NCBI RefSeq assembly: GCF_000009905.1 | Contig: NC_006177.1 | Span: 1,612,001-1,676,000, forward strand | DNA: 64,000 nucleotides | From: Symbiobacterium thermophilum IAM 14863 | Lineage (GTDB): Bacteria > Bacillota > Sulfobacillia > Symbiobacteriales > Symbiobacteriaceae | Reading direction: 5' to 3' | Shown: piece by piece, positions 40,756-45,447 of the stretch | How the letters are laid out: every line of letters begins with the position of its first letter | Numbering within the stretch: the first letter of the stretch is position 1 | Notes under the pieces: generated by a model | Database searches by the model: none | Seen by the model: the letters and a program-made list of their open reading frames with translations, nothing else | What the model was told of the DNA's origin: nothing | Made by a program: the position numbers and the translations under genes

Positions 40756-41361
40756 ATGCAGATCCAACCGCTGCCGTACGATACAACGGCTCTTGATCGG
40801 TTCCAGAGGGAAGGCCCCTTCATCTGGCTGTGGGAGCCCGAGCGCACCGAGGCGGTGCTGGGGGCGGGCACGCCCGAGACGGACGTGGACCTGGCCCGCT
40901 GCGCCGCCGACGGCGTGCCGGTCTACCGGCGCAGGGGAGGGGGCGGGGCGGTGGTCCTGGCTCCCGGGTGCCTCGTGATCACCGCGGCGTACGAGGCGTC
41001 CCGGCGCCGGTTCGCCACCCAGTGGATCGGCCCCGTCGCCGAGGCGGTGGCCCGGGCGCTGCGGAGCCTGGGGCTTCACGGCGCGGCGGTGCGGGGGATG
41101 GGCGACGTGGCCATCGACGACCTGAAGGTCCTGGGCTCCAGCCTGTACGCAAACCGGCAGGTCGCTCTGTACCAGGGCTCCCTGCTGGTCGACCCCGACC
41201 TGGACCGGATCGCCCGCTACCTGCCGCACCCGTCCCGGGAGCCCGACTACCGGCGGGGTCGCAGCCACGCCGAGTTCATGACCTCGCTGGTGCGCGCCGG
41301 CTACCGCGGCGACATGGCGGCCCTGCGGGCGGCGCTGTTGGCGGAGCTGGAACGGGTGTAG
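40756..41361 (+). CDS. Lipoate-protein ligase A-like protein
   Basis: 201-aa protein with the biotin/lipoate ligase fold: VPVYRRRGGGGAVVLAPGCL is the nucleotide/lipoyl-binding loop, and DLKVLGSSLYANRQVALYQG carries the candidate catalytic Lys. It is shorter than standard LplA and has no C-terminal accessory domain, so it may be an octanoyl/lipoyl transferase or a paralogue with a different acyl substrate. ATG 40756 with AGGAGG at 40744-40749. First gene of the insertion between polC and rimP. Confidence 0.75.
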   Translation: MQIQPLPYDTTALDRFQREGPFIWLWEPERTEAVLGAGTPETDVDLARCAADGVPVYRRRGGGGAVVLAPGCLVITAAYEASRRRFATQWIGPVAEAVARALRSLGLHGAAVRGMGDVAIDDLKVLGSSLYANRQVALYQGSLLVDPDLDRIARYLPHPSREPDYRRGRSHAEFMTSLVRAGYRGDMAALRAALLAELERV

Positions 41362-41434
41362 CGGGCGGGGATTGCGCCCGAAACAGCCAAGGGTTAGCAT
41401 TGTCAAGAGTGTTCCGAGGTGGCGGGGGGTTGCC

Positions 41435-42289
41435 TTGCAGTACCGCTTGATCGCCCTCGACGTGGACGGCACCCTGTTCTGCGGACGGCACCGGGTCTCG
41501 CCCCGGACCCTCGCCGCGCTGACGGTGGCGAGGCGGCGGGGAGCGATCACCGTCATCGCCACCGGCCGCACGCCCCATTCGGCCCTGCGCGTCAGCGCGG
41601 AGATCGGCGGCGGGCCGGTGATCTGCTGCAACGGCGCCGGCCTGCTGGACGAAGAGGGGCGGCTGATCCACCACCGGTCCATTCCCACCGAACCGCTCCT
41701 GCGCGTGCTCAAGCTGGGGCGGCAGGCGGACCTGCTGGTGCACGGGTACACGCCGGAAGGCGTGGTGCTGGACCAGCCCATGGCCCATCTGATCAGGGCC
41801 TACGCATGGCTGCGGGCCGGCGGGGCTGCCCTGCAATCGGCGGTGGGCGTCGCACGCCTGTGGGGCGCCAACCAGACCCGCCTGGTGCCCCGGCTCACGC
41901 AGTGGGCCGCGTCCCCGCACCGGCCGCCTGTGCTCAAGCTGACCCTGTTCGGGGATCCTGCCCGACTGCCGGACGTGGCCGACGCCATTCGGCGGGAAGT
42001 TCCGGGCGTGGAGGTGACCTCGTCGGGCCCGGACAACCTGGAGGTAACCGCCGCCGGGGTGTCGAAGGGCAGCGGGCTGGCGGCGCTCGGCGAGCGGCTC
42101 GGCATTCCGCCCGAGGCAACGATCGCGTTCGGCGACTCCGACAACGACCTGACGATGCTGCGCTACGCGGGGCTGGGCGTGGCCATGGGCAACGCACCGC
42201 CCCATGTGAAGGCCGCGGCGGACCGCGTGGCGCCGCCGTGTGCGGAGGACGGCGTGGCGTGCGTCCTGGAGGAGGTATGCGGCGGATGA
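41435..42289 (+). CDS. Cof-type HAD-IIB phosphatase
   Basis: 284-aa haloacid-dehalogenase-superfamily protein. Motif I DVDGTLF with the nucleophile Asp, motif II VIATGRTP, motif III Lys in AAGVSKGSGLAAL, motif IV IAFGDSDNDLTML. The cap is type IIB. Members dephosphorylate sugar phosphates, FMN or PLP; the substrate is not predictable. TTG 41435 preceded by a GGGGGGT run is taken as start. It overlaps the next gene by four bases. Confidence 0.85.
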   Translation: MQYRLIALDVDGTLFCGRHRVSPRTLAALTVARRRGAITVIATGRTPHSALRVSAEIGGGPVICCNGAGLLDEEGRLIHHRSIPTEPLLRVLKLGRQADLLVHGYTPEGVVLDQPMAHLIRAYAWLRAGGAALQSAVGVARLWGANQTRLVPRLTQWAASPHRPPVLKLTLFGDPARLPDVADAIRREVPGVEVTSSGPDNLEVTAAGVSKGSGLAALGERLGIPPEATIAFGDSDNDLTMLRYAGLGVAMGNAPPHVKAAADRVAPPCAEDGVACVLEEVCGG

Positions 42290-42759
42290 GAGTCCTGGAG
42301 GCCGTGACGCAGCTGTTGATGGGGCTGTGGGTCGGCTCGGCGGCCGGCTTTGCCCTGAGCGCCCCCAAGATCTTTGCGGCCTTCGGTCCCGACCGGCAGT
42401 CGGCCGGCGACCTGGCCGGCGACATCATCTACCTGCTCAACAACGTCGGCCTGCTGCTGGGCGTCGGCGCGCTCCTGACCCTGCTGCCCCGGCTGCGGAG
42501 CGGCGTCAACAAGGCGCGGCTGGCGCTGCTGCTGGGCTGCCTGGGTCTCGCCCTGACCACCTGGCTCTACATCTTCCCGCAGATGGAGCGGGCGCAGCCG
42601 CCCGAACCGATTCAGACCTACGCGGAGACCGATCCGGCGCGGGTGGAGTACAACCGTTGGCACACGCTCTCCGGGCGGGTGTACGGGGCCGCCATGGTGC
42701 TCGGGGTCGGCGTCATCGTGCTCGGCCCCTTCGCTGAGACGAGAGGAGGTCGCCGCTAG
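42286..42759 (+). CDS. DUF4149-like membrane protein
   Basis: 157-aa protein with about four transmembrane helices (roughly 5-30, 45-68, 78-95, 132-150) and a hydrophilic loop of about 35 residues that includes RVEYNRWHTLSGRVYG. The pattern resembles DUF4149. Function unknown. ATG 42286 overlaps the HAD stop (ATGA) with GGAGGAGG at 42268-42275, so it is translationally coupled. Confidence 0.72.
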   Translation: MRVLEAVTQLLMGLWVGSAAGFALSAPKIFAAFGPDRQSAGDLAGDIIYLLNNVGLLLGVGALLTLLPRLRSGVNKARLALLLGCLGLALTTWLYIFPQMERAQPPEPIQTYAETDPARVEYNRWHTLSGRVYGAAMVLGVGVIVLGPFAETRGGRR

Positions 42760-44112
42760 GTGGACTGGGAGCTGCGGATCCTGCAGGCGCTGGAAGGTTC
42801 CCGGCCCGGCTGGGACGAGCCCCCCGACTGGCGGGCGGTGCTCGCGCTGTACGAGGGGCTCGCCCCCGACGAGGCCGCGGCGCTGGACCGCACCGTTGTC
42901 CGCATGATCGACCTGGGGTACCGGAATCCCCACGCCTCCCGCGAGCCCGGGCCCTTTGACCAGATCGAGGTGAGCCTGCCCGCGGGCATGGCGCCCGCGG
43001 ACCTGCTCTGCATCGAGGCGGCCGTGCTCGTCGCCGCGGAGCGGGGACTCGGGGATGCCTACTTCCCGTTCCTGCGCCTCATGAGCGTGCCCACCTGGCA
43101 CGTGATTCAGGGGCGGCTGACCTGGCTCGCGCGGGAGGCTCTCGACGCACAGCGCAGGCTCAGCCTGACCCGGGCCGGCCGCGGTCTCGGCGCTCTGCTG
43201 GGGCTGGCGGCGGCCGACGCGCTGGGCTGCACGGTGGAGTTCATGAGCCGCGAGGCGATCCGGGCGCGCTGGCCGGAAGGCCACCGGGAGATCGTGGGGG
43301 GAGGCCCGTTCGGTTTCCCGGCCGGCGACTGGACCGACGACACCGCGATGGCGGTCGCGGTCGGGCGGGGGATCCTCGAGCAGCCGGACGACCCGGTGGA
43401 CGCGGTGGGCCGCCACTTCGTCGCGTGGTTCCAGTCCGGCCCCCCCGACGTGGGGAACACCTGCCGGACGGCCATCAACGCCTTCCTGCGCCTGGGGTCG
43501 TGGGAGGCCGCCAGCGCCGCTGTGCGGGCGGAACTGGGCCAGTGGGCCGCCGGCAACGGCGCGCTGATGCGCACTCTGCCCGCGGCGCTGGCCTACGGCC
43601 CCGATCCCGCGCAGGCCATCCGCATCGGGCGCATGACCCATCCGCACCCGGAATCCGACGCGGCGATCGCCGTCTACCACCGAACGGTGGACGCGCTGTT
43701 GGAGGGAGCTGCGCCGGCCGAGGCCCTGGAGGCCGGCCTGGCGCCGCTGCCGGGGGCGGAGCCTGAGGTCGGGGCGGCTATTGCGGACCTCGCCCGCCGG
43801 CTGTCCGGACTGGCCTCCCGCTCTGCCGAACGGATCCGGTCCGGCGGGTACGTGGTGGAGACGCTGGAGGCCGCACTCTGGGCCTTCCTGCGCACCGACT
43901 CGCTGGAGGAATGCGTGGTTCTGGCGGTGAATCTAGGGGATGACGCCGACACCGTCGGGGCCGTGGCCGGCGGCCTTGCGGGCGCGGCGTACGGCCCGGG
44001 GGCGGTGCCGCGGCGATGGAGCCAGGCCCTGCGCCGGCGGGCGGTGATCGACGAGCTGGCGGCGGGACTCTACGGGGTTTTCCGCGCCCGCCAGGGCGAT
44101 ACTCGGAAGTAG
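42760..44112 (+). CDS. ADP-ribosylglycohydrolase with novel N-terminal domain
   Basis: 450-aa protein. Residues from about 141 onward form an ADP-ribosylglycohydrolase (DraG/ARH) domain: RGLGALLGLAAADALGCTVE, the metal-binding GDWTDDTAMAVA (about 189-200), AAGNGALMRTLPAAL, and C-terminal NLGDDADTVGAVAGGLAGAA. These enzymes remove ADP-ribose from proteins (or Arg/Ser) using two Mg2+. The N-terminal ~140 residues are helical, containing DWRAVLALYEGLAPDEAAAL, and I do not recognise them. GTG 42760 directly follows the DUF4149 stop, with GAGAGGAGG upstream. Confidence 0.82.
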   Translation: MDWELRILQALEGSRPGWDEPPDWRAVLALYEGLAPDEAAALDRTVVRMIDLGYRNPHASREPGPFDQIEVSLPAGMAPADLLCIEAAVLVAAERGLGDAYFPFLRLMSVPTWHVIQGRLTWLAREALDAQRRLSLTRAGRGLGALLGLAAADALGCTVEFMSREAIRARWPEGHREIVGGGPFGFPAGDWTDDTAMAVAVGRGILEQPDDPVDAVGRHFVAWFQSGPPDVGNTCRTAINAFLRLGSWEAASAAVRAELGQWAAGNGALMRTLPAALAYGPDPAQAIRIGRMTHPHPESDAAIAVYHRTVDALLEGAAPAEALEAGLAPLPGAEPEVGAAIADLARRLSGLASRSAERIRSGGYVVETLEAALWAFLRTDSLEECVVLAVNLGDDADTVGAVAGGLAGAAYGPGAVPRRWSQALRRRAVIDELAAGLYGVFRARQGDTRK

Positions 44113-44123
44113 ATGGAGGTGTG

Positions 44124-44153
44124 GCGGCGGCCCGTTCGCGACCGGGCCGCCGC
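44124..44153 (+). terminator. Hairpin between ARH and membrane protein genes
   Basis: Perfect 11-bp GC-only stem (44124-44134 with 44143-44153), 8-nt loop, no U-tract, ending only 5 bases before the next ATG. It could terminate or hide the weak ribosome site of the next gene. Confidence 0.5.
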
Positions 44154-44158
44154 AGCGG

Positions 44159-44713
44159 ATGACGACAGAGACGAAGAAGACGGAAAGCATCCAGTTCGGC
44201 CTGACACTGATCCAGAAGATCCTGTACGGCGTGCTGCTGTTCGGTGCAGCCTTCGCGGTCACGCTGCTCAGCCCGCTGTTCGCGGGCCCCGGCGGCACGG
44301 TGTTTTTCGTGTTCTACGGCATACTCGTCGGCGTACTCTCCTGGTTCGTCTCCTCGGGGTGGGTGTTCAGCCTGGAGCTGACCCCTCGTGAAATCCGGGT
44401 GCGTGACGCGGGCCGGATCGTCGCGATTCCCCTGGAGAAGGTGGGGATGGTGGTGCGGGGCGGGCGAAGCCCCTTCCTGCCGGCCGTCTGGCTGGTGCTC
44501 CGGGGCGTCGACATCGGGCGCGAGCTGCCCGCCAAGGGGGTCAATCCGGTCACGCAGGAGATGCTGACCCACTTCCAGCGCCGCAACCCGGGCAAGAAGA
44601 TCACCTTCGTCCCGATCCCGATCATCTACCTCCGCTCGGCCGGGGAGTTTGTCGGCGAGCTGAAGCGGCGCATCCCGCCGCTTACCGTCGATGAGCGACT
44701 TGGTAGAAAGTAG
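44159..44713 (+). CDS. Membrane protein with PH-like domain
   Basis: 184-aa protein with two transmembrane helices (about 18-42 and 46-70) followed by a beta-rich soluble domain (about 72-170) in the style of bacterial PH-like domains, containing LELTPREIRVRDAGRIVAIP. No family named with certainty. ATG 44159 has no good Shine-Dalgarno site and stands right behind a GC-rich hairpin, so translation may be weak or regulated. Last gene before the rimP promoter. Confidence 0.65.
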   Translation: MTTETKKTESIQFGLTLIQKILYGVLLFGAAFAVTLLSPLFAGPGGTVFFVFYGILVGVLSWFVSSGWVFSLELTPREIRVRDAGRIVAIPLEKVGMVVRGGRSPFLPAVWLVLRGVDIGRELPAKGVNPVTQEMLTHFQRRNPGKKITFVPIPIIYLRSAGEFVGELKRRIPPLTVDERLGRK

Positions 44714-44964: not shown

Positions 44965-45447
44965 TTGGCGAAGAGCGGCAAACGTCTCGAGGAGCTGGTG
45001 GAGGAACTGGCTGCCCCCCATGCGGCCGCGCTGGGGCTGGAGCTGGTGGGGGTTGAGCTGGTCAAGGAAGGAGCCTACCGCTATCTCCGTGTCTACATCG
45101 ACAAGGAGGGCGGGGTTGGATTTGACGACTGCGAGGCGCTCAGCCGGGTGGTCGACGCCCAGCTGGACGAAATACTGCCCAATCCACCGTACGATTTCTT
45201 CGAGGTCTCTTCGCCAGGGCTGGACCGGCCCCTAAAGCGCGAGGCAGACTTCGCCCGCTACGTGGGACACAAGGTGGTGGTCACCACCTATGCCCCCGTG
45301 GACGGGCAGAAGTCGTTTGTGGGTGAGTTGCAGGGGCTTGTCGACGGTCGCGTGACCCTGACTCTGACAGAGGGCAAAGGGCGCGGCCAGACCATCGCCC
45401 TCGACCGCAAACAGGTGGCGAGCGCTCGACTTTACGTTGAGTTTTAG
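44965..45447 (+). CDS. rimP: Ribosome maturation factor RimP
   Basis: 30S-assembly factor. The 160-aa protein has the N-terminal alpha/beta domain ([20 protein letters not shown] then [15 protein letters not shown]) and the hallmark [19 protein letters not shown], followed by the C-terminal SH3-like domain. TTG 44965 with GGAGG at 44949-44953. First gene of the nusA operon. Confidence 0.95.

What the first reader, a model, noticed from the sequence alone, without database searches (positions are those of the whole stretch)
42760..43185. ADP-ribosylglycohydrolase fused to an unrecognised N-terminal domain
About 140 residues precede a complete DraG/ARH domain. They look folded (helical, with DWRAVLALYEGLAPDEAAAL). 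The gene directly follows genes for a HAD phosphatase and a DUF4149 membrane protein with overlapping starts. A coupled HAD/membrane/ARH unit could form a de-ADP-ribosylation pathway or target a specific modified substrate.
Basis: partly seen in the sequence, partly recalled or inferred. Interest (0 to 1): 0.5.

Follow-up and report, generated by a model that had tools for sequence, protein, structure and literature searches.

The report
ADP-ribose-removing enzyme with borrowed adaptor domain
A bacterial enzyme that probably strips ADP-ribose tags from proteins carries an extra helical domain, so far seen only in its own bacterial order, where close relatives make that domain as a separate protein beside the same phosphatase and membrane-protein genes.

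Summary
Window 42760-44112 (+) encodes 450 aa: an N-terminal domain (NTD, about aa 1-138), then a complete DraG/ARH domain (PF03747, aa 144-419). The NTD has no meaningful match in Pfam, NCBIfam, PHROGs or PDB sequences. It is predicted all-helical (pLDDT 87.6), with only weak structural matches.

The coupled HAD/membrane/ARH pathway is weakly supported. All 8 sampled genomes of the order carry the NTD after HAD-DUF4149. The window's family (5 of 5) fuses it to ARH. In the sister family (3 of 3) it stands alone, under purifying selection in the one pair tested, and in two genomes runs into rimP-nusA. The NTD thus belongs to the HAD-DUF4149 operon; ARH is separable. Outside the order: 0 of 146 class genomes; in a 398-genome phylum sample only the window's own at E<=0.001.

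The ARH keeps DraG's hallmark aspartate (D230). DRAT, DarT, KptA and exotoxin-type transferases were not found, but controls for DRAT and exotoxin were silent.

Best explanation: the NTD docks a DraG-like ADP-ribosyl-arginine hydrolase onto DUF4149/HAD at the membrane. The partner, location and activity are inferred. New variant of a known kind; modest interest.

The parts
42760..43173 (+). N-terminal domain (NTD, aa 1-138; C-terminal border uncertain by about 15 residues): helical domain seen only in this order, proposed adaptor
   Evidence: Homologues in 8 of 8 order genomes, fused in 5 and stand-alone in 3; AlphaFold pLDDT 87.6; dN/dS 0.20-0.46
43174..44112 (+). DraG-like ADP-ribosylglycohydrolase domain (Pfam match aa 144-419) and stop
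   Evidence: PF03747 E 1e-70; DraG 2woc Z 42.1, rmsd 1.6 over 285 residues, 37% identity; Asp97 of R. rubrum DraG aligns with D230
42277..42759 (+). DUF4149 membrane protein; overlaps HAD by 13 bases, stop abuts the fusion gene
   Evidence: PF13664 E 9e-10; next to the NTD in 8 of 8 order genomes
41372..42289 (+). Cof-type HAD-IIB phosphatase (start codon uncertain)
   Evidence: PF08282 E 3.9e-54 and TIGR00099 above its cut-off; upstream of DUF4149 in 8 of 8 order genomes
44159..44713 (+). Small protein, probably membrane-bound (by eye), weakly like a bacterial PH domain; follows ARH in the window's family
   Evidence: PF23494 E 0.0096, 15.8 bits against a cut-off of 27; present after ARH in 4 of 4 family genomes whose fetched stretch reaches there, not found between NTD and rimP in the 2 sister-family genomes that show rimP
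44965..45447 (+). rimP (name recalled), start of the rimP-nusA block that anchors the synteny
   Evidence: ORF; tblastn places rimP and nusA after the NTD in L008 and L009 and after the PH-like gene in L012

Best explanation
The protein is a DraG-like ADP-ribosyl hydrolase joined to the third product of a HAD-DUF4149-NTD operon that also exists without it. The NTD is a small helical protein-binding adaptor whose native partners are the DUF4149 membrane protein and/or the HAD phosphatase. By fusion it brings the hydrolase to that complex, probably at the cytoplasmic face of the membrane. There the ARH domain removes ADP-ribose, most likely from arginine, from a locally held substrate. Shown: domain structure, conservation, synteny, stand-alone NTD in the sister family, conserved DraG aspartate. 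Inferred: binding partner, membrane location, substrate and catalysis.
For: NTD follows HAD-DUF4149 in 8 of 8 genomes of the order, with or without ARH. The stand-alone NTD is under purifying selection in the one pair close enough to test (G005 versus G006, dN/dS 0.24 against 1.64 and 1.30 in the two wrong frames; 30 differences), so the NTD has a function apart from ARH. In G005 and G006 HAD-DUF4149-NTD runs into rimP-nusA, the same downstream genes as in the window and in G003. The five fused ARH domains form one clade (98/96). DUF4149 stop and NTD-ARH start touch, overlap by one base or lie 3 bases apart in 5 of 5 family genomes, suggesting coupled expression. The full-length model is confident (pLDDT 94.0, pTM 0.93). 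The NTD model's best but weak structural neighbours are helical-repeat, ENTH and VHS-type modules. ARH aligns with DraG over 285 residues and keeps DraG's Asp97 (D230). DraG itself is controlled by membrane sequestration (PMC7050489, passages; PMC6067124, start of abstract).
Against: No direct evidence for any NTD partner; the adaptor role rests on synteny and weak fold matches (Foldseek best E 1.6, VIA Z 6.6 at most, a level the tool says is common for helical models). The placing of NTD against ARH in the model was not checked by predicted aligned error, which the tool does not give. The Glu of DraG's adenine-binding ExxA motif is not kept (Q261 here; E, Q, D and N in the other four), so recognition may differ. 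Gain of ARH by one family or loss by the other cannot be told apart: no outgroup with the NTD was found. No transferase was found, so no substrate modification is known.
Confidence: 0.4

Rival explanations
1. The NTD is a lid or substrate-recognition domain dedicated to the ARH active site, comparable to the N-terminal extension of the immunity protein Tri1 (its role recalled).
For: Tri1 (6dre) is among the closest structures of the ARH domain (Z 41.2) and its ARH domain also starts late, near residue 64. The Tri1 profile match begins at aa 119, inside the last stretch of the NTD, and a few structure rows reach further into it (8za7 from aa 78 at rmsd 4.1, 6sga from aa 72 at rmsd 5.0, 6g1q from aa 96).
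Against: Stand-alone NTD genes without ARH are conserved in the sister family. The aligned ranges of both Tri1 structures start at aa 134, so aa 1-118 have no Tri1 counterpart in any call.
Confidence: 0.2
2. HAD and ARH act in sequence: ARH releases ADP-ribose and the HAD phosphatase (with DUF4149 as transporter) processes or exports the product, as proposed for ARH-phosphatase conflict systems.
For: Coupling of ARH domains with phosphatases, among them a HAD 5'-nucleotidase, is reported (PMC9503650 section 3.8, read), and one phosphatase-ARH fusion of that kind turned up here (L051, motif by eye).
Against: HAD-DUF4149-NTD exists without ARH at the locus in 3 of 3 sister-family genomes. This HAD is Cof-type (TIGR00099). 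No Nudix, WYL, macro or NADAR gene was recognised among the five proteins scanned at 40756-44713.
Confidence: 0.12
3. The fusion arose by chance joining of neighbouring genes and the NTD only co-expresses or stabilises ARH, with no joint mechanism.
For: The fusion was seen in one family only and its ARH domains are one clade; both halves also occur separately.
Against: The fusion persists in 5 of 5 family genomes down to 54% NTD identity, with both halves under purifying selection.
Confidence: 0.15
4. Defence: the enzyme reverses ADP-ribosylation imposed by phage or competitor transferases.
For: No own transferase was found with four families (two without a working control), the pattern used for this prediction in PMC9503650.
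Against: No PADLOC hit. The locus sits beside rimP-nusA in the genomes where the fetched stretch reaches that far, G007 excepted, rather than in a variable island. NTD was not found in viral contigs by a pattern-limited scan.
Confidence: 0.08

Closest known systems
DraG (ADP-ribosyl-[dinitrogenase reductase] hydrolase; PDB 2woc, 3g9d)
   Same: ARH fold, Z 42.1 and rmsd 1.6 over 285 residues; TDDT and DADT motifs; DraG-specific Asp97 kept as D230
   Different: Scores 214 bits against the TIGR02662 cut-off of 337; extra NTD; ExxA glutamate not kept; no DRAT found, though that control was silent
Tri1 immunity ADP-ribosylarginine hydrolase (PDB 6dre; NF041672)
   Same: ARH domain preceded by an N-terminal extension; Z 41.2
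   Different: 181 bits against a cut-off of 490; the extension has no counterpart to aa 1-118 of the NTD in the calls made; neighbouring genes scanned hold no toxin
ARH-phosphatase (ARG-centred) systems of PMC9503650
   Same: ARH next to a phosphatase gene; no transferase among the neighbours scanned
   Different: HAD is Cof-type; no Nudix/WYL regulator, chaperone or ARPP recognised among the five proteins scanned; the HAD-DUF4149 unit exists without ARH
ENTH/VHS/armadillo-type helical domains
   Same: Among the best VIA-align neighbours of the NTD model (Z about 4-5; best row of all is BRAT1 in 8uib, Z 6.6)
   Different: Z values at the level the tool calls common for helical models; no sequence match

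Membership tests
ARH superfamily (PF03747) | Score above curated Pfam cut-off over the full profile | tested here: met
   239.1 bits against 26.2, profile 1-287 of 287
ARH superfamily (PF03747) | Binuclear metal-site residues (E, TDD, DxD-T; identities recalled) | tested here: met
   E160, T192-D193-D194, D395-A-D397-T398 present and aligned with DraG
DraG equivalog (TIGR02662) | Score above equivalog cut-off | tested here: not met
   214.1 bits against 337.05
DraG equivalog (TIGR02662) | DraG-specific aspartate (Asp97 of R. rubrum DraG) | tested here: met
   D230 aligns with the position that is Asn in the D97N structure 2woe; feature described in PMC7050489 (passages)
DraG equivalog (TIGR02662) | Glutamate of the adenine-binding ExxA motif (Glu121 of R. 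rubrum DraG) | tested here: not met
   Q261 in the window; E, Q, D and N in the four relatives; residue numbering taken with the 5-residue offset shown by D97N
DraG equivalog (TIGR02662) | Partner transferase DraT in the genome | tested here: inconclusive
   No PF07357 match, but no control genome rang either
Tri1 (NF041672) | Score above equivalog cut-off | tested here: not met
   181.5 bits against 490
ARG-centred conflict systems (PMC9503650) | ARH coupled to phosphatase plus Nudix/WYL regulator or chaperone genes | tested here: inconclusive
   A HAD phosphatase is close by; none of the other parts was among the five proteins scanned (40756-44713 only)
ENTH/VHS/ARM helical-repeat folds (NTD) | Clear structural match | tested here: inconclusive
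   Foldseek no match at E<=0.001; VIA best Z 6.6, rmsd 3.4 over 98 residues

The most novel reading that the evidence does not exclude
HAD-DUF4149-NTD is an uncharacterised membrane complex peculiar to this bacterial order (Symbiobacteriales, name recalled), and in one family a DraG-type hydrolase has been wired into it through the NTD, giving a membrane-docked de-ADP-ribosylation module whose modification and transferase are both unknown.
Probability: 0.25. Interest if true: 0.5.

Novelty: new variant of a known kind. Interest (0 to 1): 0.33.

Why it matters
DraG is switched off by being tethered to the membrane through other proteins. A homologue with a built-in adaptor, found free in sister species, would be a natural test of how ADP-ribosyl hydrolases are targeted. 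It would also point to an unknown ADP-ribosylation in this lineage; the paper listings I saw did not show one described there, though I opened none of those papers. The stand-alone/fused pair is a Rosetta-stone hint that NTD, DUF4149 and HAD work together.

Tried and rejected
NTD against Pfam, NCBIfam, PHROGs and PDB sequences gave chance-level hits only: cyclin-Y E 0.73 and transketolase E 0.96, DUF5419 E 0.019 in one of eight members, phrog_26269 E 0.27 in one of eight, citryl-CoA lyase E 0.13 in one of eight. PADLOC, given the full protein and the NTD: none at E<=0.1. Foldseek with the NTD against PDB and viral models: none at E<=0.001. A second NTD in the own genome: two matches at E 0.08 and 0.25, taken as chance. 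NTD as a diverged copy of ARH: rejected, hhalign probability 0.5%.

The NTD-only scan of the genome collection found nothing, but it also missed L012, which lies in that collection and does carry the NTD, so it is a weak negative. The class search scored at most 26 candidates a genome and the phylum search at most 10.

Paenibacillus OK003 (L048), whose tblastn match began at query residue 43, looked like a second fusion; it has no NTD and its ARH frame starts at the domain. Of the 80 ARH loci kept, the NTD profile matches only L012, the same contig as G003. L051 also has a long N-terminal part, but it looks like a cysteine phosphatase (motif by eye), an architecture of the kind described in PMC9503650.

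The seven phylum genomes other than the window's own with E 0.014-0.088 to the NTD profile match over 33-77 profile positions or fewer and were taken as chance. The ARH found in G005 is half a domain at a contig end, 35% identical over 66 residues; I did not count it as an orthologue.

An alignment with stand-alone NTD rows beside ARH-only rows misaligned them (A3); those three rows were left out of the full-length model's alignment (A4), and so was one ARH row (L046, which read an X). A4 and the tree use 25 of the 80 ARH loci, chosen by me for spread. The first DUF4149 profile was built in the wrong reading frame and redone; no DUF4149 result is used.

Full report
What is there. The window lies in a 3,566,135-base single-contig genome. 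The size fits Symbiobacterium thermophilum, which is my recollection, not a tool result. The gene at 42760-44112 encodes 450 residues starting with GTG. Residues 144-419 match PF03747 over its whole length at E 1e-70; residues 1-138 have no meaningful match in Pfam or NCBIfam. It is the only PF03747 match in the genome. Upstream are a Cof-type HAD phosphatase and a DUF4149 membrane protein. HAD and DUF4149 overlap by 13 bases, and the DUF4149 stop codon abuts the GTG.

The NTD is a real domain. Eight NTD sequences from the order align with 27 invariant positions; the consensus reads MIDxxYRNPH and LPxGMxPxDLLCxEAA in the best-kept stretch. Within the family, dN/dS of the NTD is 0.20-0.46 over 10 pairs and that of the ARH part 0.15-0.38, with synonymous sites partly saturated. 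AlphaFold predicts a compact all-helical domain from eight sequences (pLDDT 87.6, pTM 0.84); the full protein gives pLDDT 94.0 and pTM 0.93. Foldseek found no PDB or viral match to the NTD at E<=0.001. VIA-align gave at best Z 6.6 (rmsd 3.4, 98 residues, BRAT1 in 8uib), with ENTH, VHS, CTD-interacting and armadillo domains at Z about 4-5. The tool notes that such values are common for helical models, so I read this only as a hint of a helical binding module. The NTD is not a diverged ARH copy. Its C-terminal border is soft: stand-alone versions align to about aa 126, and some ARH relatives match from before aa 138 (Tri1 profile from aa 119; 8za7 from aa 78 at rmsd 4.1).

Where it occurs. The NTD profile matches 8 of 154 class genomes, which are the 8 sampled genomes of the order; 0 of the other 146 match at E<=0.01. 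In 398 genomes drawn from the phylum only the window's own matches at E<=0.001; seven others give E 0.014-0.088 over short stretches. In the 84,980-species collection a pattern-limited search with the NTD alone found nothing, but it also missed L012, which is held there and carries the NTD. Plasmids and viral contigs gave none. The tools say that records of the window's own genome may be left out of these collections.

Fused in one family, separate in the other. In the five genomes of the window's family (G000-G004) the NTD is joined to ARH; in G004 the contig ends inside ARH. In the three sister-family genomes (G005-G007) the NTD is a stand-alone ORF after HAD and DUF4149. In G006 and G007 no PF03747 match was found in the assembly; G005 has one partial ARH at a contig end that looks like a different subclass. 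In G005 and G006 the stand-alone NTD is followed by rimP and nusA, the genes that lie beyond the ARH and PH-like genes in the window and in G003 (gene names recalled). In G007 a different gene follows. Between G005 and G006 the stand-alone NTD has dN/dS 0.24, against 1.64 and 1.30 in the other two frames; DUF4149 has 0.21 and rimP 0.11 (30 differences in the NTD). So the NTD is a gene in its own right, tied to HAD-DUF4149, and ARH is the variable part. Gain in one family and loss in the other both fit, as no outgroup with the NTD was found.

The ARH part. Its best structural match is R. rubrum DraG (2woc, Z 42.1, rmsd 1.6, 285 residues, 37% identity); other DraG structures and Tri1 score within 1 of it. 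The aspartate that marks DraG enzymes (Asp97; PMC7050489, passages) is D230 here: it aligns with the position that is Asn in the D97N structure 2woe. Metal-site motifs are intact (ligand identities recalled). The glutamate of DraG's ExxA adenine motif falls at Q261 here, and at E, Q, D and N in the other four. The protein fails the DraG and Tri1 equivalog cut-offs (214 against 337 and 181 against 490 bits). In a tree of 30 ARH domains (5 fused, 25 chosen from the 80 loci) the fused ones form one clade (98/96), with two other Bacillota sequences on long branches beside them. I therefore call it DraG-like, not DraG.

Transferases. DRAT, DarT, KptA/Tpt1 and exotoxin-type families gave no match in the genome. 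The DarT and KptA searches rang in one and three control genomes; the DRAT and exotoxin searches rang in none, so those two say little. Other transferase families and sirtuins were not searched.

Mechanism. The stand-alone/fused pair, the constant DUF4149 and HAD neighbours and the touching genes suggest that the NTD binds one of those proteins and that fusion brings the hydrolase to them. DraG itself is controlled by sequestration at the membrane through GlnZ/GlnK and an ammonium transporter (PMC7050489, passages; PMC6067124, start of abstract), so a built-in tether is plausible. Partner, location, substrate and activity are all untested. It is weakened here, since HAD-DUF4149-NTD exists without ARH, and this DUF4149 or HAD was found near ARH in only 1 of 80 loci, L012 (50 of the 80 are 9 kb or longer, and the DUF4149 profile came from the order itself).

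Literature. Searches for DUF4149 (five papers, none about it by title), for Symbiobacterium with ADP-ribosylation (two papers, not opened), for ARH fusions and for the combination listed nothing that describes this architecture by title or start of abstract. Of these papers only PMC9503650 was opened, in passages and one section. The library holds open-licence papers only.

Verdict. It is a lineage-specific fusion, a new variant of a known kind.

Noticed in passing
window 44159-44713: A small protein with a weak bacterial PH-domain match lies after the ARH gene in the window's family (4 of 4 whose fetched stretch reaches there) and was not found between NTD and rimP in the two sister-family genomes showing rimP.
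   Followed up: partly
L103, L110 (G004) and L101, L109 (G005): Two DUF4149 genes flank the HAD gene (DUF4149-HAD-DUF4149-NTD) in one genome of each family.
   Followed up: partly
L100 (G005 C7, contig end): A partial ARH gene of an apparently different subclass beside a sugar-epimerase-like gene (NanE-like by eye).
   Followed up: no
L007:1968-3167: An ATPase of the AAA/DUF4143 kind (by eye) follows the stand-alone NTD in G007; rimP was not seen in the fetched stretch.
   Followed up: no
L051:4377-5930: A cysteine-phosphatase-like domain (motif by eye) fused in front of an ARH domain, of the kind described in PMC9503650.
   Followed up: no
window 40756-41361: A lipoate ligase A/B-like gene (PF21948) lies directly upstream of the HAD gene.
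   Followed up: no
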